Assembly (NCBI GenBank): GCA_016185345.1
Contig: JACPNS010000021.1
Span: 124,001 to 188,000 of the forward strand
Direction: 5' to 3'
From: Solirubrobacterales bacterium
GTDB lineage: Bacteria; Actinomycetota; Thermoleophilia; Solirubrobacterales; JACPNS01
DNA length: 64,000 nucleotides
A program made the position numbers and the translations under genes. Shown here in pieces: positions 46,837 to 56,158 of this stretch. How positions within the stretch are numbered: position 1 is the stretch's first letter; each line of letters opens with the position of its first letter. Under the pieces are notes generated by a model. That model did no database searches. It saw only the letters and a list, made by a program, of their open reading frames with translations, and was not told where the DNA came from.

Positions 46837-46902
46837 TTGCCCGCTGGTAACGACGGCCACCAACCCTGGGAAAGCTCTTCTTCTTGCCGCCATGGTGTCG
46901 GC

Positions 46903-46908
46903 TAGGAT
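46903..46908 (+). promoter_or_regulatory. Possible -10 box of the diheme cytochrome gene
   Basis: TAGGAT ends 11 nt before the ATG at 46920. Confidence 0.4.
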
Positions 46909-46919
46909 TCCCGCCGGAT

Positions 46920-47573
46920 ATGCAGATACGACCTCACAATACATCGAAAAAAACCTTCGCGCTCGGAGCACTCCTGGTGGTCAGCGTCTTCGTCGCGGGC
47001 TGCGGGAACAACTCCAAGACCTCCCTCTCCAATGGCAAGACGCTCTTCACCGCCAAGTGCGGCGGTTGTCACAAGCTGGCGCGCGCCAGCACGGTTGGCA
47101 CGATCGGCCCTGACCTTGACGAAGCTTTCCGTCAGTCCGTCAAGGATGGGATGGGCGACACAATCCAGGGAGTCGTCGAAGGCCAGATCAAGTACCCCTC
47201 CCAGAAGCTCTACCCGAAGAGCTTGGTCATGCCACCTGACCTCGTAACCGGCATGGACGCCAACGACGTCGCGGCATATGTCTCCTACGCAGTCGCGAAG
47301 CCGGGCAAGGACCCGGGCGCTTTGGGTCAAATAGGCGGAGGCACCGACGGCAGGGGTCTCTTCAAGACCAACTGCGCCGCTTGCCACAGGCTCGCAGATG
47401 CCGGAACTGTTGGCACGGTTGGCCCGAATCTCGACCAGACCAAGCTCGGCCTGGCTGCTGCCATCAAGCAGATAGAGAACGGCGGCAACGGAATGCCCGC
47501 ATTCAAGGGCGCTCTCACCGACGCTCAGATCAAGTTGATCGCGGCGTATCTCGAGAAGGTCAAGGGCAAATAG
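46920..47573 (+). CDS. Diheme cytochrome c lipoprotein
   Basis: 217 residues. The N-terminus has a hydrophobic helix and the lipobox VAGCGN, so it is probably lipid-anchored outside the membrane. Two cytochrome c domains follow, each with one heme site (CGGCH and CAACH) and a downstream axial methionine candidate (LVMPPDL; NGMPAFKG). It lies next to the oxidase genes, convergent to them, and is a good candidate electron donor to CtaC. The ATG at 46920 matches the lipoprotein signal; 46884 would add 12 unlikely residues. Confidence 0.92.
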   Translation: MQIRPHNTSKKTFALGALLVVSVFVAGCGNNSKTSLSNGKTLFTAKCGGCHKLARASTVGTIGPDLDEAFRQSVKDGMGDTIQGVVEGQIKYPSQKLYPKSLVMPPDLVTGMDANDVAAYVSYAVAKPGKDPGALGQIGGGTDGRGLFKTNCAACHRLADAGTVGTVGPNLDQTKLGLAAAIKQIENGGNGMPAFKGALTDAQIKLIAAYLEKVKGK

Positions 47574-47989: not shown

Positions 47990-48601
47990 CTAAAGTACGT
48001 AGAGGGTTGTGAACACGAACAACCACATCACGTCGACGAAGTGCCAGTACAGACCGGGGATTTCAACGCCCCAGTGCTTTTCTTTCTCGGGGCCGTAGTG
48101 GCCCTTGAAGGCACGGTTGGCAACAACCATGAGGATGATCAGGCCAACGACCACGTGAGCTCCGTGCAATCCGGTGAGGCTGAAGAACACAGTCGCCTGC
48201 GCGCTGTCCTTGGGCAGGAAGCCCAGGTGGACGTACTCGCTGATCTGGATGCCGAAAAAGGTGGCTCCGAGAAGAATGGTGAGCACGAGGCCGGTCTTGA
48301 ATGCCTTGCGATTGTTGTGCTTGATTCCCTCAAGCGCCCAATGCATGGTCGCTGATGACGAGAAAAGAATCGCTGAGTTTGCCAGCGCTACGTAGATCGG
48401 CAACTCCTGGCCCTCGGGCATCCACGGGTCGCCCTGGACGACGCGAATAAAGAAGTATGCGGCGAAGAATGAACCGAAGAGCATCAGCTCCGAGGTGATG
48501 AACAGGACCATTCCAAGCCATTCGCGGTTGACGTTCGCCGAAGAGTTGGCGACCGGCATGTGGCCTTCGCTGTGGTCATCGTGCGCTGCGTGGGCTTCCA
48601 T
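47990..48601 (-). CDS. ctaE: Cytochrome c oxidase subunit III
   Basis: Membrane subunit supporting subunit I. 203 residues, with membrane helices and the family blocks MVLFITSELMLFGSFFAAYF, ALEGIKHNNRKAFKTGL, and GLHGAHVVVGLI. Shorter than 7-helix forms, consistent with a five-helix version. It starts 2 nt after ctaD, so it is translated with it. Confidence 0.95.
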   Translation of the reverse strand: MEAHAAHDDHSEGHMPVANSSANVNREWLGMVLFITSELMLFGSFFAAYFFIRVVQGDPWMPEGQELPIYVALANSAILFSSSATMHWALEGIKHNNRKAFKTGLVLTILLGATFFGIQISEYVHLGFLPKDSAQATVFFSLTGLHGAHVVVGLIILMVVANRAFKGHYGPEKEKHWGVEIPGLYWHFVDVMWLFVFTTLYVL

Positions 48602-48603
48602 CG

Positions 48604-50562
48604 CTATGCGTCTCCGTTAGTGGTCGAAGTGTCATCGGCTTCGGGCGCTGTCTCGGCAACGCGCTCCTCGGCAACGCGCTCCTCGGCAGGTGCGCCTACT
48701 GTGGCGACTACCGGCTCGGGCTCCTTGAATATGCCGTGACGTGCGCCGGGAACGCCGTACTCGTAGGGGTGACCGACGACCGTCGGGACCTCGTCGAAGT
48801 TGAAGATTGGCGGCGGGCTGCTGACCTGCCACTCAAGTGTGTGTGCGTGCCACGGGTTGGCCGGCGCGATCGGACCCTTGCGCCAGGACCAGACCATGTT
48901 GTAGAGGAAGATCAGCATCGACGCGCCCAGCACGAAAGATGAGATCGATATGAAGAAGTTCCAGGCAGCGAACTGCTGTGCGTAGTCAGCTACACGTCGC
49001 GGCATGCCCTCGAGACCAATCAGGTGCTGAGGGCCAAAGGTGGCGTTGAAGCTGATAAACGTCATCCAGAAGTGCCATTTGCCCAGCTTCTCGTTGTACA
49101 TGCGCCCGGTCATCTTGGGAAACCAGTGATAGATCCCGGCGAAGATCGTGAAGAGCGATCCTCCGAACAGCACATAGTGGAAGTGCGCGACTATGAAGTA
49201 CGTGTCAGAAACCGCGATGTCGAATGGGACGACGGCCAGCATGACTCCGCTGATGCCGCCCAGCACGAACATCGTTATGAAGCCGAAGGCCCAGTACATG
49301 GGTGTCCGCATATGGATCACACCTCCCCACATGGTTCCGAGCCAGGAGAAGATCTTCACTCCCGTTGGAACGGCAATGAGCATGGTGGTCAGCATCATTG
49401 GTATTCGAATCCAATTCTGCATCGGCGCCACGAACATATGGTGCGCCCATACGGCGAATCCGAGCACGATGATGGCGAGCAAGGAGAACGCCATCATTCG
49501 ATATCCGAATACGGGTTTTCGAGCGTGTGTCGAGATCACCTCCGAGATGATTCCGAAGCCCGGAAGGACCATGATGTACACCGCCGGGTGGCTGTAGAAC
49601 CAAAACACGTGCTGGTACATCACCGAGCTGCCACCCTGGGCGGCGTCGAAGAAGTTCATGCCGAGCGCGCGGTCGAAGAGGATCATGAACTGCGAACCCG
49701 CGATGAACGGCGTTGCGAGCACGACCAGCAGCGAGGTTGAGAAGTTGGCCCAACCGAGCAGCGGCATGCGCCAGAAGGTCATGCCTGGCGCGCGCATCGT
49801 GATGATCGTGACCAAGAAGTTGATCGCCGTCAGGATTGATGAGGATCCCGCAAACTGCGCAGCAACTGAGAAGAAGGTTTGGCCCAGCGGCGCGTTTGTC
49901 GAGAGCGGTGCGTAAGCGGTCCAGCCGGTCGCGAAAGCGCCGCCGGGCACGATGAAGCTCAGGACCATCATCACGCCCGCGATCGGCAGGAACCAGAAGG
50001 ACAGGGCGTTCAGGCGGGGGAAGGCCATGTCCGGCGCACCGAGCATCAGCGGTAGGACGTAGTTGGCGATTCCGGCGAATACCGGCACCATGAAGAGGAA
50101 GATCATCAACGCGGCGTGCGCAGAGAAGAGACCGTTGAAGGTCTGAGCGTCGACGAACTGCATGCCGGGCTCGAGCAGCTCGGCGCGGAACAGCATCGCG
50201 AGCATTCCGCCGATCATGAAGAAGAAGAACGTCGTGACGATGTACTGGATGCCGATGACCTTGTGGTCGGTGTTGAAGTGGAAGTAGTCCTGCCACTTGC
50301 GCGCACCGTGGTCGGCGTGGTCATCAACCTTGGTCGGCTTGCCCGAGAGCCAGTAGAGCCAGTAGTCCATGCAGCCGATTCCGTAGAGGAACGCAACCGG
50401 GACGGTCAGGAGTGCGACGGTGGTGATCGATTCCCAGCTGATTTCCTGCTCCCAGCCAAGGAGAAGGCGCATGCCGGTGACGATGACGAAGGCAACGACG
50501 TAGCCGATCGCCATCGAAAAAGTTGCGCGGTACCAACCTGGGGAGCGGAGTGATGCGGCCAT
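48604..50562 (-). CDS. ctaD: Cytochrome c oxidase subunit I, A2-type
   Basis: Catalytic subunit that reduces O2 and pumps protons. 652 residues. All metal ligands are present: low-spin heme His149 and His462, high-spin heme His460, and CuB His325, His374 and His375, with cross-linked Tyr329. The helix VI motif is YSHPAVY instead of GHPEVY, so the proton-channel glutamate is replaced as in A2-type enzymes. Two additional helices (about residues 10-70) precede the usual start, and a long acidic tail follows helix XII. Begins 24 nt after ctaC. Confidence 0.96.
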   Translation of the reverse strand: MAASLRSPGWYRATFSMAIGYVVAFVIVTGMRLLLGWEQEISWESITTVALLTVPVAFLYGIGCMDYWLYWLSGKPTKVDDHADHGARKWQDYFHFNTDHKVIGIQYIVTTFFFFMIGGMLAMLFRAELLEPGMQFVDAQTFNGLFSAHAALMIFLFMVPVFAGIANYVLPLMLGAPDMAFPRLNALSFWFLPIAGVMMVLSFIVPGGAFATGWTAYAPLSTNAPLGQTFFSVAAQFAGSSSILTAINFLVTIITMRAPGMTFWRMPLLGWANFSTSLLVVLATPFIAGSQFMILFDRALGMNFFDAAQGGSSVMYQHVFWFYSHPAVYIMVLPGFGIISEVISTHARKPVFGYRMMAFSLLAIIVLGFAVWAHHMFVAPMQNWIRIPMMLTTMLIAVPTGVKIFSWLGTMWGGVIHMRTPMYWAFGFITMFVLGGISGVMLAVVPFDIAVSDTYFIVAHFHYVLFGGSLFTIFAGIYHWFPKMTGRMYNEKLGKWHFWMTFISFNATFGPQHLIGLEGMPRRVADYAQQFAAWNFFISISSFVLGASMLIFLYNMVWSWRKGPIAPANPWHAHTLEWQVSSPPPIFNFDEVPTVVGHPYEYGVPGARHGIFKEPEPVVATVGAPAEERVAEERVAETAPEADDTSTTNGDA

Positions 50563-50586: not shown

Positions 50587-51381
50587 CTACTTGGCTGTTG
50601 CGGAGTCTTGGAATGCTCCGGGCCAGGTCTGGGGGTCGGTGTTTGCGCCGGTCGGCTTGGGCGCTTTGGCGCTCTTCTGGGCCGCAACCCATGCGGTGAA
50701 CTGGGCGGGAGTGACCACACGCAGCGTCGAACGCATGGTCGCGTGTCCAATTCCGCACAGCTCGGCGCAAAGGATCGGGTAGGAGCCGAGCTTGTCTGGC
50801 TTGAAGCGGATGCGGGTGGTGAAGCCGTCGGCGACGTCGCGTTTGACGCGTGCTGACGGGATGTAGAAACTGTGAATGACGTCGGCAGATGTCATCTCGA
50901 AATAGAGCGGGCGGTCGACCGGGACGACGAGGTCTCCGCTGGTCTTGACGCCCTGTTCGGGGTACTGGTAGTTCCAGGCGAACTGCTGACCGATCACCTT
51001 GATCGTCATCGAGTTCGGCTGCGCTGCCTCGACCTTGTCGAGCACGGTCCAGGCGTAGAGGCCCAGCGCCATGACGACGATCGTCGGAATGATCGTCCAG
51101 ACGATCTCGATCTTGGTTGAGCCGTGGAACGGAGCGCCGTCCTTGTCCTCGGGGTCTTCCGGCTTGGCGCGAAACTCGACGAGGCAGAAGGCGAGGATCG
51201 CGCAAATGATGATGAAGAACGGGATCGAGGCGATGAGCAACGCCTTGTACACCGTGTCAACCGGCTTCATGTCCTCGGCGACCAGCGTTCCCATCCAGTC
51301 GTAGGCGAGGGAGAATGCGATCAGCCCAGCGGTCACCAAGAGGGCGACAACTATGCCGACGATGCGATGTGAGGCTTTCAT
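50587..51381 (-). CDS. ctaC: Cytochrome c oxidase subunit II
   Basis: Accepts electrons from cytochrome c through the binuclear CuA centre. 264 residues with two membrane helices (about 10-30 and 45-70), the aromatic QQFAWNYQYPE, and all CuA ligands: His in DVIHSFYIP and CAELCGIGHATM. A clear AAGGAG ribosome-binding site precedes the ATG. First gene of ctaC-ctaD-ctaE; no cytochrome c domain is fused, so a separate donor such as the diheme protein is needed. Confidence 0.96.
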   Translation of the reverse strand: MKASHRIVGIVVALLVTAGLIAFSLAYDWMGTLVAEDMKPVDTVYKALLIASIPFFIIICAILAFCLVEFRAKPEDPEDKDGAPFHGSTKIEIVWTIIPTIVVMALGLYAWTVLDKVEAAQPNSMTIKVIGQQFAWNYQYPEQGVKTSGDLVVPVDRPLYFEMTSADVIHSFYIPSARVKRDVADGFTTRIRFKPDKLGSYPILCAELCGIGHATMRSTLRVVTPAQFTAWVAAQKSAKAPKPTGANTDPQTWPGAFQDSATAK

Positions 51382-52017: not shown

Positions 52018-52263
52018 TTAGCTGAGCGGGAGCTCGTCGGACTCGACGCGCGAATCGCCGATCCAGGCGATTGAGACCCAGGCGATCGTGACCAGCCCGG
52101 CATACATCAGTGGGCGGAAGGCGAAGAGGCCGATCAGCGTGAGCAGGAAAGCGACGGCAAGGACGATCGGCTTGACCGAAGGACGCGTCAGCCAGATCGA
52201 GTCGACCTCGGGCTGGTTGTTCGCGCCGCTCGCCGACTCATCAATGAACTCTGCGTGGGTCAT
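52018..52263 (-). CDS. Small two-helix membrane protein of the ctaB operon
   Basis: 81 residues. A polar N-terminus is followed by two membrane helices (about 32-50 and 52-70) and an acidic end. It lies 5 nt after the 36-residue gene and in line with ctaB. The layout resembles the small subunit IV (CtaF) of actinobacterial oxidases, but the match is by size and position only. Confidence 0.6.
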   Translation of the reverse strand: MTHAEFIDESASGANNQPEVDSIWLTRPSVKPIVLAVAFLLTLIGLFAFRPLMYAGLVTIAWVSIAWIGDSRVESDELPLS

Positions 52264-52268
52264 GTGAC

Positions 52269-52379
52269 CTAGCCGACCCAGAGGACGGTGATCAGGAAGG
52301 CCGACGCGAATGCGACGGCTGCGATGCCACCGATCAGGATCGATGAGCGAAGGTTGCGTTGTACTTGTGTGCGATTCAT
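52269..52379 (-). CDS. 36-residue membrane protein between ctaB and the 81-residue gene
   Basis: ATG at 52379-52377, TAG at 52271-52269. The product has a basic N-terminus (MNRTQVQRNLRSS) and one membrane helix, ILIGGIAAVAFASAFLITVLW. It lies 36 nt after ctaB and ends 5 nt before the next ATG, so it fits the operon without overlap. No clear ribosome-binding site. It resembles very small oxidase subunits in size and topology; its existence needs peptide or ribosome evidence. Confidence 0.5.
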   Translation of the reverse strand: MNRTQVQRNLRSSILIGGIAAVAFASAFLITVLWVG

Positions 52380-52415: not shown

Positions 52416-53366
52416 CTAGAGCGACGTGTCCACGACCATCGCGACGAAGAGCAGCGCGAGGTACGTGAGCGAGTAGAGATAGGTCCTGAGGACGATTTTG
52501 CGCTCGCTGTTGCGCGTAAGTTGGACCGCGCGATAGATGAAGAGCGACCCCAGCAAAAGCGCTGAAACGGCGTAGAAGGCGCCGAAGGCGCCGGTTGCCA
52601 CTGGGATCATTGTGGTCACGAGCAGCAGGATCGAGTAGACGAGGATGTGCGTTGTCGTTGACTTCACACCACGCACGACCGGCAGCATTGGCACTGCGCT
52701 TGCGGCGTAGTCGTCTTTGATCAACACGGAAAGCGCCCAGAAGTGAGGCGGCGTCCACATGAAGACGATCGCGAAGAGCAACCAGGCAGTAGGGCTCAGC
52801 GACCCTGTGACGGCCGCCCAGCCCACCAGAGGGGGCACGGCGCCCGCAGCTCCACCGATCACGATGTTCTGAGGTGTGCGGCGTTTGAGCCACAGCGTGT
52901 ATACGAAGACGTAGCCGAGCAGGCCCGCGGTTGCTAGCGCGGCAGCCAGGGTGTTGACCGCGATCACCAGCACTACGACCGAGGCAACGCCGAGAAAGAT
53001 CCCGTAAGTCACCGCGGCGCGCGGCGAAATGCGACCGGCCGGAATCGGGCGGTTGGCAGTGCGCTCCATCTGCAGGTCGATGTCGCGGTCGATGAAGTGG
53101 TTGATCGCGCCGGCGCTGCCAGTCGAGAGCGCTCCGCCCAGGCAGGTGAAGAAGACCAGCTCGAAGGACGGGCTGCCAGCGACGAGCATCGTCGTGACGG
53201 TGGTCCAGAGCAGCAGTGACTGGACGCGCGGCTTTGTGAGTTCGAGGTAGTCGGCGGCAACTTGGCGCGCGCGACCGACGGCGCTGGGTTCAGCTGCCGG
53301 AGCCGCCTGGACGGACGGGATTGGTCGGGTTTGAGTTGCTGCTTCCACTGATCTGAGGTCGTGCAT
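52416..53366 (-). CDS. ctaB: Protoheme IX farnesyltransferase
   Basis: Makes heme O from heme B, the first step to heme A for the aa3 oxidase. 316 residues with about nine membrane helices and the prenyl-diphosphate-binding motif NHFIDRDIDLQMERTANRP. The second conserved region, LKRRTPQNIVIGG..AVPPLVGWAAVTG, is also present. ATG at 53366 has AAGG just upstream; a TTG at 53393 is too close to the TAGAAT -10 (53402-53397) to be used comfortably. No heme A synthase (ctaA) is seen in the window. Confidence 0.93.
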   Translation of the reverse strand: MHDLRSVEAATQTRPIPSVQAAPAAEPSAVGRARQVAADYLELTKPRVQSLLLWTTVTTMLVAGSPSFELVFFTCLGGALSTGSAGAINHFIDRDIDLQMERTANRPIPAGRISPRAAVTYGIFLGVASVVVLVIAVNTLAAALATAGLLGYVFVYTLWLKRRTPQNIVIGGAAGAVPPLVGWAAVTGSLSPTAWLLFAIVFMWTPPHFWALSVLIKDDYAASAVPMLPVVRGVKSTTTHILVYSILLLVTTMIPVATGAFGAFYAVSALLLGSLFIYRAVQLTRNSERKIVLRTYLYSLTYLALLFVAMVVDTSL

Positions 53367-53396
53367 CAGAGCCTTGCGTGAGGCTTGGGGCAACGA

Positions 53397-53411: not shown

Positions 53412-53438
53412 AAAAAACCGACCCTGTGGGATCGGTTT
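53412..53438 (-). terminator. Intrinsic terminator after the subunit I-like gene
   Basis: AAACCGA/TCGGTTT arms plus inner CCC/GGG. On the minus strand the stem ends in TTTTTT. It overlaps the TAA at 53437-53439. Confidence 0.85.
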
Positions 53439-55161
53439 AGTGCTTTGATTCGCGCAACGACGGCCGTCCGGCCGTCGGTGACTGCGCGACCGAGCCGGCA
53501 AGCTCGCCGGTCCCGGCAGCGATCTGTGCGCGCAGGTCGGTCAGCGGTGTTTCACTTGCAACTGCCGGGATCGCGTCAAAGTTGTTGACCGGCGGGGGCG
53601 AGGGCACAAACCATTCGAGGGTGCCCGCCCGCCAGGGGTCGTTTCCGGCGGTTGCTCCGGACGAGTTCGACTGCATGAGGTTTATCAGCAGTCCGACCGT
53701 GCCGAAGGCACCGAGGATCAGGCCGATCAGGGCAAGAATGTTGCGGAATTCGTAGCTGCTGCTCGTGTAGGTGGAGAGTTCGCGGGCGAAGCCATCGACA
53801 CCGAGCGAGAACAGAGCAAAGAACTGGAGTGCTGTGCCGATCACGAGCATGCCTAGCGCAACGCGCGCCTTGGCGGCGGAGACGTTCTTGCCGGTCATCT
53901 TCGGGAACCAGTACAGAAGCGCCGCAAAGCCGCCGAATCCTGCGGTGCCCCAGACTTGGTTCAGCCATGAGGCGTAGCCGGCCTGGCTGCCGTAGATCCA
54001 CTGTGAAAGCGCCGGAAGGCTGAGCGCGACGTGGAAGACGATCGCGATTGCAAAGAACACGCTGAAGGCGACGGCAAAGGCAGATGGGGCGGTTGACTGG
54101 TAGTCGCCGCTGCGCAGAGTGGCGATCCAGGTCTGGAAGATTACTGCCGCCGGGATCACGAGCGCGAGGCCGATCACCATGAAGACGAGGTTCCAGAATG
54201 GCTTCACCGGGGCGCCGAAAAAGACGACGCCAAAGCTGAGGATTCCGAGGATCGCGAACGCGCGGATTGCCTTCTTCAGCGCAGAAGCGTTGACGATCGA
54301 GCGGCCAGAAGCTGCGGCAAAGATTTCGCTCACCGCGCCGATCGCGACGACAGTGATCAGGTATGGAGCCGAGTGTGACCACCACTGGAAGAGCGTCTTC
54401 CAGAGCAGCGGGCTTCCGCCGTCAACGGGGTTGAAGATTCCGAACGACGTGTATTGGCGCTCGAGCAGGGCCAGAATGCAGATCGCGACCAGTACCGGGG
54501 CCGTGACGAGGATTCCATATGCGTAAACGGAGACTGCGTAGGAGAAGACCGGCGTGCGATCGCCGCTCATGCCTTCGGCGCGCAGCGTTTTGTACGTGAC
54601 GGCGAGGTCGATCGCGTTGAAGGTGAGTCCGCCACCGATCAGGACCATCGCTGTGAGCCAGAAGTCTGCGCCTGAGCCGCCCGAATAGAACAGCTCAAAG
54701 AGCGGGGCGGAGGTCTGGACAGTGCCCTGCCAGGTGTTCACGAAGGTGCTGAACACAGCAAAACTGCCGCCGAGGATGATCATCCAGGTTCCGAGCGCTG
54801 AAAGTCGCGGGAAAGCGCTGCTGCGCGCGCCGATCTGCAGGGGAAGCACGTAGGTGGCGATGCCAGCAAACAGCGGCAGCGCGAACATGTAGAGGAGGCC
54901 GGTGTCCGAAAGGGTGTGAAGGCTGTAAAAGCGCTCGGGGCTGAGGAAGGTGTTGTCGCTGACCGCAAGCTGGATTTGGCCCAGGATCTCCATGAATCCG
55001 GCGAGCACGAGCATCACGCAGGCGAAACCGATCAGTGTGGTGCCGATGACCTTGTGGTCTGCGCTGCGGGCGCGATCAATCCAGCGGGCGCGGGTGTTGT
55101 CGATCGGCTCGCGAACGACAACTTCGGAAACCTTCGAGGGCTGCTCAAATGCCGTGCTCAC
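53437..55161 (-). CDS. Subunit I-like heme-copper oxidase homologue lacking most heme and copper ligands
   Basis: 574 residues, complete, with the helix pattern of subunit I and shared blocks with CtaD (ADHKVIG, LFAGIATYVLPLQIGA, AFPRL, YWFPKMTGK, SPPP-NFD-P). Aligned with CtaD, heme-a His149 is Ser85, the CuB pair His374/375 is Val312/Val313, His460 is Ser398 and His462 is Leu400. Only CuB His (263) and the Tyr (267) of the cross-link pair remain, in SHSAPY. It cannot bind heme a or a3 in the usual way. It has no stop or frameshift and lies next to a subunit II-like partner that has also lost CuA, 2 nt away at most. Role unknown: perhaps structural, assembly or proton-linked. Confidence 0.88.
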   Translation of the reverse strand: MSTAFEQPSKVSEVVVREPIDNTRARWIDRARSADHKVIGTTLIGFACVMLVLAGFMEILGQIQLAVSDNTFLSPERFYSLHTLSDTGLLYMFALPLFAGIATYVLPLQIGARSSAFPRLSALGTWMIILGGSFAVFSTFVNTWQGTVQTSAPLFELFYSGGSGADFWLTAMVLIGGGLTFNAIDLAVTYKTLRAEGMSGDRTPVFSYAVSVYAYGILVTAPVLVAICILALLERQYTSFGIFNPVDGGSPLLWKTLFQWWSHSAPYLITVVAIGAVSEIFAAASGRSIVNASALKKAIRAFAILGILSFGVVFFGAPVKPFWNLVFMVIGLALVIPAAVIFQTWIATLRSGDYQSTAPSAFAVAFSVFFAIAIVFHVALSLPALSQWIYGSQAGYASWLNQVWGTAGFGGFAALLYWFPKMTGKNVSAAKARVALGMLVIGTALQFFALFSLGVDGFARELSTYTSSSYEFRNILALIGLILGAFGTVGLLINLMQSNSSGATAGNDPWRAGTLEWFVPSPPPVNNFDAIPAVASETPLTDLRAQIAAGTGELAGSVAQSPTAGRPSLRESKH

Positions 55162-56061
55162 TTAGTTGCCCTTTCCGTCAGACTTCGCGGCAGCGCCAGC
55201 CTGCTCGCGCTCGGCGCCAAGTGCAGTCATCGCCTCGTTGATCTCAATTTGTTTGCCGGCGAGCCAGCGCACGAAGAGGCGCGGGTCGACCACGGTCACA
55301 TTGGTGATCTGGCTTGCGTAGTTGGTCCCGTTCACCACGGTGCCTGAGCCTGTGTAGAGGCCGGGCCGCTCGGCTCGGACCCAGAATTTGTTGCTGTAGC
55401 CAGGCATTGCGGTGACCGATCCGCCTAATTGGGGTACCCACCAGGCAGCTTCCACATCTGAAGAAGTGAAGTCGAGCAATACCGTCACGCCTGCGGGGAG
55501 CACGAGGTCGTTATAGGAGTAGGTGTTCCACTTGGCGTCCTTGATACCGCTGTAGTCGTAGCGCCAAAGGAACTGTTGGGCGTTCACGCGGATGCTGTAG
55601 GCCGGGCCCTTCGGGGCTTTCACAACGTGCGCGACCTTCAGACCGGGCTGGCTGAAAGTGGTGACCTTGAAGTCTCCGGTCTCAGGAAGCGATTCTTCGG
55701 CAGACACGGTCTTGGTGTAGGCGAAGCTGCCGATTACGACAAATACGAGGAAGATCACACTGCCGACGACAACAGCGGGCTTGGCGCTGGAGTCTGCGAC
55801 GGCAGGTGCGTCGGCGTTTACTTCGGCGCGACCGGCGCCAAGAAGAGTGAGTGTGTAACCGATGACTGCGATCAGACCGACCACAAAGACAGCGAGAAAC
55901 AGGTCGAGCACGACCTGTGCGACCGGCGAATTTGGGGAGTCCGGCCACAGCGGAGTCGCCGATGCGGTCTGCGGCAGCACAAATAAAGTGGCTGCGGCAG
56001 CAGAGACGAAAAGCGAGCTACGACGGGCCGAAGAGCGATTTGTGGGGGTCTGGATCTGCAA
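55162..56061 (-). CDS. Subunit II-like protein lacking all CuA ligands
   Basis: 299 residues from the TTG at 56061, which has TACAAT 9 nt upstream; an ATG at 56106 lies beyond that box. It has a signal peptide (ending PQTASA), two membrane helices, and a cupredoxin-like domain with QQFLWRYDY and SSDVEAAWWVPQLGG, the framework of subunit II. Compared with CtaC, His of DVIHSF is Ala, and CAELCGIGHATM is replaced by GTVVNGTNYASQ, so both cysteines, the histidine and the methionine are lost. Its stop lies directly before the subunit I-like ATG. Confidence 0.87.
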   Translation of the reverse strand: MQIQTPTNRSSARRSSLFVSAAAATLFVLPQTASATPLWPDSPNSPVAQVVLDLFLAVFVVGLIAVIGYTLTLLGAGRAEVNADAPAVADSSAKPAVVVGSVIFLVFVVIGSFAYTKTVSAEESLPETGDFKVTTFSQPGLKVAHVVKAPKGPAYSIRVNAQQFLWRYDYSGIKDAKWNTYSYNDLVLPAGVTVLLDFTSSDVEAAWWVPQLGGSVTAMPGYSNKFWVRAERPGLYTGSGTVVNGTNYASQITNVTVVDPRLFVRWLAGKQIEINEAMTALGAEREQAGAAAKSDGKGN

Positions 56062-56070
56062 GGCGCGCGG

Positions 56071-56076
56071 ATTGTA
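56071..56076 (-). promoter_or_regulatory. Possible -10 box of the oxidase-like pair
   Basis: TACAAT on the minus strand, ending 9 nt before the TTG at 56061, so a leaderless mRNA is likely. Confidence 0.45.
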
Positions 56077-56158
56077 TCTATTCGCCAGACGGCCATCGAG
56101 TTTCATGCCGAGCTGACTTCCGGCGAGCGCCTGCGCGGGCGCGCCCGTCGCGGCGGAG

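What the first reader, a model, noticed from the sequence alone, without database searches (positions are those of the whole stretch)
53437..56061. A complete heme-copper oxidase subunit I/II pair that has lost nearly all redox cofactor ligands
The subunit I-like protein aligns along its length with the ordinary CtaD in the same window. Heme-a His149 and His462 are replaced by Ser and Leu, heme-a3 His460 by Ser, and CuB His374/375 by Val-Val. Only the third CuB His and the Tyr of the His-Tyr pair remain. The adjacent subunit II-like protein has lost all CuA ligands (His, both Cys, second His, Met), while the framework (QQF-W, WVPQLGG) stays. Both genes are full length, adjacent, and have a promoter and a terminator, so they look maintained rather than decayed. 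Joint loss in both subunits implies a non-respiratory role, perhaps an assembly scaffold, a membrane partner for the active oxidase, a proton path or a sensor.
Basis: partly seen in the sequence, partly recalled or inferred. Interest (0 to 1): 0.9.

Follow-up and report, generated by a model that had tools for sequence, protein, structure and literature searches.

The report
Cofactor-free cytochrome oxidase subunit pair
Two neighbouring genes encode proteins that look like the two core parts of a respiratory oxygen-using enzyme but lack nearly all the residues that hold its iron and copper; related soil bacteria have kept this stripped-down pair under selection, so it has probably become a structural or assembly part rather than an enzyme.

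Summary
Window 53437-56106 (-) encodes full-length subunit I- and II-like proteins of an A-type heme-copper oxidase. All heme a and a3 ligands, two of three CuB histidines and all CuA ligands are gone. Both proteins still give oxidase-fold models.

Comparison adds the history. Gene order (trxB, LPG-synthase, SU2b, SU1b, [ctaA], ctaB, 36-aa ORF, 80-aa ORF, ctaCDE) is conserved across the order Solirubrobacterales. In two families SU2b/SU1b is an ordinary A1-type oxidase. In the window's genus (5 of 5 genomes) and in another family (all 18 genomes read, at least 11 genera) the ligands are lost, most simply once in a shared ancestor. One further genome (G044) lost CuB, heme a3 and CuA ligands independently. 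The ORFs are open and under purifying selection (dN/dS 0.13 and 0.15 in the window's genus). In G044, SU1b, SU2b and the 80-aa protein diverged fast while ctaB and ctaCDE did not, as expected of one complex.

Most likely role: a cofactor-free scaffold tied to heme A/oxidase biogenesis. That role is inferred. A published precedent exists: Acetobacter keeps a COX1-like protein without metal ligands beside ctaB (PMC10715153). Hence a new variant of a known kind.

The parts
55162..56106 (-). dSU2: subunit II-like protein, 314 aa, cupredoxin domain without any CuA ligand
   Evidence: COX2 6.5e-10, CoxB 4.4e-25; ligand columns; AF2 pLDDT 80, pTM 0.71 and Foldseek E 3.8e-13 to CcO subunit II
53437..55161 (-). 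dSU1: subunit I-like protein, 574 aa, 12 TM helices, heme a / a3 ligands and two of three CuB His lost
   Evidence: PF00115 4.5e-62; ligand columns; AF2 pLDDT 84, pTM 0.88 and TM-score about 0.87 to solved oxidases
53415..53438 (-). terminator-like hairpin followed by TTTTTT after dSU1 (only imperfectly present in G001)
   Evidence: and 60 sequences; fold -18.3 kcal/mol, z -3.7
52416..53393 (-). ctaB, heme O synthase, only copy in the genome
   Evidence: UbiA PF01040 2.8e-65; single match in G000
52269..52379 (-). 36-aa single-TM microprotein ORF, conserved across the order
52018..52263 (-). 80-aa two-TM protein, probable subunit IV-like partner of SU1b/SU2b (no Pfam match)
   Evidence: order-wide synteny; accelerates with SU1b/SU2b in G044
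50587..51381 (-). ctaC, subunit II of the ordinary oxidase, CuA ligands intact
   Evidence: CoxB 1.5e-50, above cut-off
48604..50562 (-). ctaD, subunit I of the ordinary A2-type oxidase, all ligands intact
   Evidence: TIGR02891 4.6e-206, above cut-off; ligands
47990..48601 (-). ctaE, subunit III of the ordinary oxidase
   Evidence: COX3 4.2e-39

Best explanation
The pair is the orthologue, by synteny and phylogeny, of a second (A1-type) cytochrome c oxidase of Solirubrobacterales. The ancestor of the window's family and its probable sister family lost the heme a, heme a3, CuB and CuA sites and the proton channels, but kept the subunits as a folded, cofactor-free membrane complex (dSU1 + dSU2 + probably the 80-aa subunit-IV-like protein). 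Most likely it now works as a non-catalytic scaffold for making the remaining aa3 oxidase: it sits in the operon of the heme O/A synthases (ctaB, and ctaA in many relatives) and would hold or stabilise these enzymes or an assembly intermediate of CtaCDE, using the retained cytoplasmic face. Shown: ligand loss, orthology, maintenance, coordinated change of the three genes in G044. Predicted: fold. Inferred: complex formation and the scaffold role. I give about 0.9 to 'maintained cofactor-free pseudo-oxidase' and about 0.4 to the biogenesis-scaffold role.
For: Ligands lost in 5/5 genomes of the genus and in every f4 genome read (18 genomes, at least 11 genera), with open frames. Same synteny as canonical pairs of f2/f3. 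Tree: f1+f4 one clade, 100/99, sister to the order's canonical A1 proteins; RpoB also puts f1 with f4, weakly (84/84). dN/dS G000-G001 0.126 (dSU1) and 0.145 (dSU2), against 0.132 (CtaC) and 0.080 (CtaD). Oxidase fold predicted. Of 202 residues invariant in canonical SU1b, f1 keeps 103 and f4 132; retention is higher on the cytoplasmic side (f1 62/98 vs 23/64, p 0.0008; f4 73/98 vs 37/64, p 0.04). ctaA lies between SU1b and ctaB in G002, G003 and several f4/f3 genomes; ctaB is single copy. G044 vs G056 identity: SU1b 0.67, SU2b 0.71, 80-aa 0.70, against CtaB 0.92, CtaC 0.90, CtaD 0.97, CtaE 0.95. Precedents: Acetobacter ligand-free COX1-like beside ctaB, proposed to stabilise CtaB (PMC10715153); oxidase subunits assemble without hemes in a surf1 mutant of Paracoccus (PMC5249081).
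Against: Adjacency to ctaB is ancestral (also in canonical genomes), so it is weak evidence of function. In the window genome a terminator-like hairpin and a TAGAAT-like element separate dSU1 from ctaB, so the two need not be co-transcribed. CtaB itself shows no matching rate shift. No interaction data; the fold model used canonical relatives in its alignment. The cytoplasmic bias is absent in G044 and modest in f4. The complex could not be modelled here.
Confidence: 0.45

Rival explanations
1. Permanent structural partner: the cofactor-free complex is built into a respiratory supercomplex or hetero-oligomer with the bc complex and CtaCDE, as an inert membrane block that holds or orients them.
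For: Retained subunit-I/II framework and subunit-IV-like protein changing together; bc complex and ordinary aa3 present in the same genomes; actinobacterial III2-IV2 supercomplexes are known and are among the best fold matches. A 'deranged' bc1 kept to stabilise complex I has been proposed in Acetobacteraceae (PMC10715153).
Against: No rate shift in CtaC/D/E where the pair changed recently (G044); canonical relatives use the same pair as an oxidase, sometimes with no A2-type CtaD match in the genome (G029, G050), so a built-in contact is not ancestral.
Confidence: 0.25
2. Retained passenger in slow decay: no function of its own, kept because of its place upstream of ctaA/ctaB (transcription or translation coupling).
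For: Faster than its neighbours (f1-canonical identity 0.32 against 0.59 for CtaB); G044 shows a recent loss; in Acetobacter, mutation of ctaD beside ctaB was read as loss of function (own recollection of Matsutani 2014; paper not held).
Against: Open frames in all genomes read across at least 11 genera plus the window's genus, dN/dS 0.13, lineage-specific invariant residues at the former active site (f4 His-His->Gln-Asn in 11/11; propionate Arg->Asp/Glu in 16/16), terminator-like hairpin between dSU1 and ctaB in the window genome.
Confidence: 0.12
3. New transport or sensing function: the emptied core became an ion/proton path or a sensor domain.
For: New polar or acidic conserved residues at the former active site and propionate site (Gln-Asn in f4; Asp/Glu at the second propionate Arg in all 16 f1/f4 rows).
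Against: D-channel, K-channel and the E286-type Glu are lost in f1 and f4; f1 has several new conserved Trp near the heme sites; no channel or sensor domain detected.
Confidence: 0.13
4. Still a redox enzyme that binds heme or copper through shifted ligands.
For: dSU1 keeps one CuB His and the Tyr; part of f4 keeps the second heme a His; G044 keeps both heme a His.
Against: Of nine His invariant in canonical SU1b, f1 and f4 consensus keep two each; the remaining ligand positions vary within the genus and family; CuA Cys replaced in all. No compensating conserved Cys/His was seen in the columns examined.
Confidence: 0.05

Closest known systems
Acetobacter COX1-like protein (ctaD) lacking all metal ligands, next to ctaB (PMC10715153, citing Matsutani et al. 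2014)
   Same: Oxidase subunit I with the cofactor ligands lost, kept in the ctaB cluster; structural role proposed
   Different: There it is described as a COX1-like gene in bacteria that use a ubiquinol oxidase. Here subunits I and II are both kept, the host has an intact aa3 oxidase, and the state is fixed across two families with measured purifying selection.
A1-type cytochrome c oxidase SU2b/SU1b of other Solirubrobacterales (e.g. Patulibacter)
   Same: Orthologous, same gene order, same predicted fold
   Different: Those keep all heme, CuB and CuA ligands, the D- and K-channel residues and Glu286
'Deranged' bc1 complex of acidophilic Acetobacteraceae (PMC10715153)
   Same: Respiratory complex with lost cofactor ligands in two subunits at once, proposed to be kept for structure
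   Different: Different complex; partial loss
Apo-oxidase formed in a Paracoccus surf1 mutant (PMC5249081)
   Same: Shows that the oxidase subunits can assemble without heme
   Different: A mutant state, not an evolved protein

Membership tests
Heme-copper oxidase superfamily, subunit I (by descent) | Sequence match over the whole COX1 domain and 12-TM fold | tested here: met
   PF00115 4.5e-62 over 2-434/436; AF2 and Foldseek TM about 0.87
Heme-copper oxidase superfamily, subunit I (as an oxygen reductase) | Six His ligands of two hemes and CuB | tested here: not met
   One of six left in dSU1. Classifiers discard sequences without these His (PMC3084760)
Heme-copper oxidase superfamily, subunit I (as an oxygen reductase) | D/K proton channels | tested here: not met
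   Asp132, Asn139, Glu286 and Lys362 equivalents replaced in all f1 rows; Thr359 in 4 of 5
CoxA/CtaD equivalog | Score above TIGR02891 cut-off | tested here: not met
   297.5 against 670.75 bits
CoxB/CtaC (CuA subunit II) | CuA ligands His, 2 Cys, His, Met | tested here: not met
   all replaced in dSU2; 88.4 against 147.7 bits
Solirubrobacterales SU2b/SU1b orthologue group | Same gene order and one clade with the order's A1 proteins | tested here: met
Ligand-free COX1-like protein of Acetobacter type | All cofactor ligands lost and gene adjacent to ctaB | tested here: inconclusive
   both features met apart from one residual CuB His; whether the two losses are related was not tested, because no Acetobacter sequence was read here
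Pseudoenzyme kept for a scaffold role | Demonstrated non-catalytic role in another protein's assembly or activity | not testable with these tools
   needs deletion and pull-down

The most novel reading that the evidence does not exclude
A family-wide, multi-subunit, cofactor-free heme-copper oxidase complex that has been recruited, in more than one lineage, to a new non-redox job (assembly hub or ion path) that the living cell depends on.
Probability: 0.35. Interest if true: 0.85.

Novelty: new variant of a known kind. Interest (0 to 1): 0.62.

Why it matters
Heme-copper oxidases are defined by their metal ligands, and a widely used classifier discarded sequences without them (PMC3084760), so pseudo-oxidases are easily filtered out of view. 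A conserved two- to three-subunit oxidase without cofactors, with an intact sister version in neighbouring families and one recent independent loss, is a natural experiment: it separates what the scaffold needs for folding and partner contacts from what catalysis needs. It also offers a direct test of whether oxidase subunits help heme A synthesis or oxidase assembly.

Tried and rejected
A first RpoB tree was spoiled by antisense ORFs and was replaced. The absence of SU1b in G010 was not used as evidence of dispensability, because ctaB is missing from that assembly too. The low scores of G110, G111, G090, G114 and G128 were fragments, ordinary CtaD or canonical proteins, not further losses. 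The sigma-70 promoter scan found nothing; no defence-system match. The gene first labelled Sco-like downstream of ctaE is a diheme cytochrome c. A complex structure prediction and laying out the whole genome were not possible. Literature: no paper on this pair in Solirubrobacterales was found.

Full report
What is there. Two adjacent minus-strand genes, dSU2 (55162-56106) and dSU1 (53437-55161), code for full-length relatives of cytochrome c oxidase subunits II and I. dSU1 matches PF00115 end to end (4.5e-62), scores 297.5 bits on the CtaD/CoxA model (cut-off 670.75), and matches solved aa3 subunit I chains at about 1e-62; dSU2 matches COX2 and CoxB. The stop of dSU2 abuts the GTG start of dSU1. 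The genome has one further heme-copper oxidase subunit I, the ordinary CtaD in the same window, plus a bd oxidase and a bc complex.

Ligands. In CtaD numbering, dSU1 has Ser for H149 and Leu for H462 (heme a), Ser for H460 (heme a3), Val-Val for H374/H375 (CuB). H325 and Y329 remain but are not conserved in the genus: G002 has Asn for H325, and G003 and G004 have Phe for Y329. The D-channel Asp and Asn, the Glu286 equivalent, the K-channel Lys and one of the two propionate Arg are lost as well. dSU2 has no CuA ligand left, while the QQF-W and WVPQLGG framework stays.

Relatives. All five genomes of the genus carry the pair (57-88% identity in dSU1, no internal stop). A second family of the same order, here f4, carries a ligand-free pair with a different and partly fixed set of replacements: CuB His-His became Gln-Asn in every f4 protein, the second propionate Arg became Asp (11/11 rows in alignment A1), and the CuA Cys pair became other residues, mostly Ser. 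This was seen in all 18 f4 genomes whose gene was read (at least 11 genera), and in named MAG contigs of Solirubrobacterales (L006, L007, L009, L011). Families f2 and f3, and the class-level outgroups read, have all ligands. One f2 genome, G044, has lost CuB, heme a3 and CuA ligands but keeps both heme a His; its close relative G056 is intact. This is a separate, later loss.

Orthology and history. The gene order trxB, LPG-synthase, SU2b, SU1b, [ctaA], ctaB, 36-aa ORF, 80-aa ORF, CBS, ctaC, ctaD, ctaE is shared, with local variation, between canonical and ligand-free genomes. The SU1b tree, rooted on canonical class-level sequences, unites f1 and f4 with 100/99 support. Long branches there could mislead, but RpoB also places f1 next to f4, weakly (84/84), and f1 and f4 share derived residues (for example Gly at 179 and 411, Ala at 95, 16/16). 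One ancestral loss plus one in G044 is the simplest account.

Maintenance. Between G000 and G001 dN/dS is 0.126 for dSU1 and 0.145 for dSU2, against 0.132 for CtaC, 0.080 for CtaD and 0.082 for CtaB. The pair is therefore under purifying selection, though it changes faster than CtaD. AlphaFold2 gives dSU1 pLDDT 84 and pTM 0.88, and Foldseek finds oxidase subunit I at TM about 0.87; dSU2 gives pLDDT 80 with subunit II matches. The alignment behind the models contains canonical relatives, so the fold is expected rather than independent evidence. Residues invariant in canonical SU1b are kept more on the cytoplasmic side than on the periplasmic side (f1 62/98 vs 23/64, p 0.0008; f4 73/98 vs 37/64, p 0.04), a bias absent in G044. 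f1 has gained conserved Trp near the heme sites (260, 323, 399, 404; 144 and 388 in loops), which suggests filled pockets; this was not measured on coordinates.

A complex rather than single proteins. In G044 against G056 identity falls to 0.67 (SU1b), 0.71 (SU2b) and 0.70 (80-aa protein), while CtaB, CtaC, CtaD and CtaE stay at 0.92, 0.90, 0.97 and 0.95. The 80-aa protein has the motif IHLPGPS in most canonical genomes and loses it in f1 and f4. I take it as a likely subunit IV of this complex (inference).

Function. No tool result shows function. The gene neighbourhood is the heme O/A synthesis operon: ctaB is single copy, and ctaA lies between SU1b and ctaB in G002, G003 and several f3/f4 genomes, though in the window genome ctaA is elsewhere and a terminator-like hairpin separates dSU1 from ctaB. 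Published work describes a COX1-like protein of Acetobacter that lacks all metal-binding residues and is kept beside ctaB, with a proposed role in stabilising CtaB (PMC10715153). Oxidase subunits can assemble with empty heme sites in a Paracoccus surf1 mutant (PMC5249081). I therefore favour a cofactor-free scaffold in heme A/oxidase biogenesis (about 0.4). A structural place in a respiratory supercomplex is next (0.25), then transport or sensing (0.13), a passenger in slow decay (0.12), or residual redox function (0.05).

Novelty. The kind (oxidase subunit without ligands beside ctaB) is known from one short description. A conserved two- to three-subunit version, fixed across two bacterial families that also have a working aa3 oxidase, with intact orthologues next door, was not found in the papers searched. 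A published survey pipeline discarded such sequences by design (PMC3084760). I file it as a new variant of a known kind.

Noticed in passing
window 52269-52379 (-): 36-aa single-TM ORF (MNRTQVQRNLRSSILIGGIAAVAFASAFLITVLWVG) directly after ctaB; relatives of it lie in the same place in nearly all loci of f1, f2 and f4 where the site could be read. Possibly a CtaK-like small oxidase assembly protein (recalled, not tested).
   Followed up: partly
window 52018-52263 (-): 80-aa two-TM protein without Pfam match; motif IHLPGPS in most canonical genomes, changed in ligand-free genomes; diverges with SU1b/SU2b in G044.
   Followed up: partly
G044:C17 (L146 9126-12073): Partial pseudo-oxidase: keeps both heme a His, loses CuB, heme a3 and CuA ligands; its close relative G056 is intact. 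A recent intermediate worth biochemical study.
   Followed up: partly
L185-L190 (class-level relatives, f6/f8): A1-type subunit I with HxHN instead of HxHY after the heme a His; otherwise the ligands are present.
   Followed up: no
window 46884-47573 (+): Lipoprotein-like diheme cytochrome c (two cytochrome c domains) next to ctaE, opposite strand; possible electron donor to the ordinary oxidase.
   Followed up: no
G029, G050 (complete or near-complete genomes): Only the A1-type SU1b matched; no A2-type CtaD match, so in these genomes the SU2b/SU1b pair is probably the sole A-type oxidase, with no subunit III seen in the locus.
   Followed up: no
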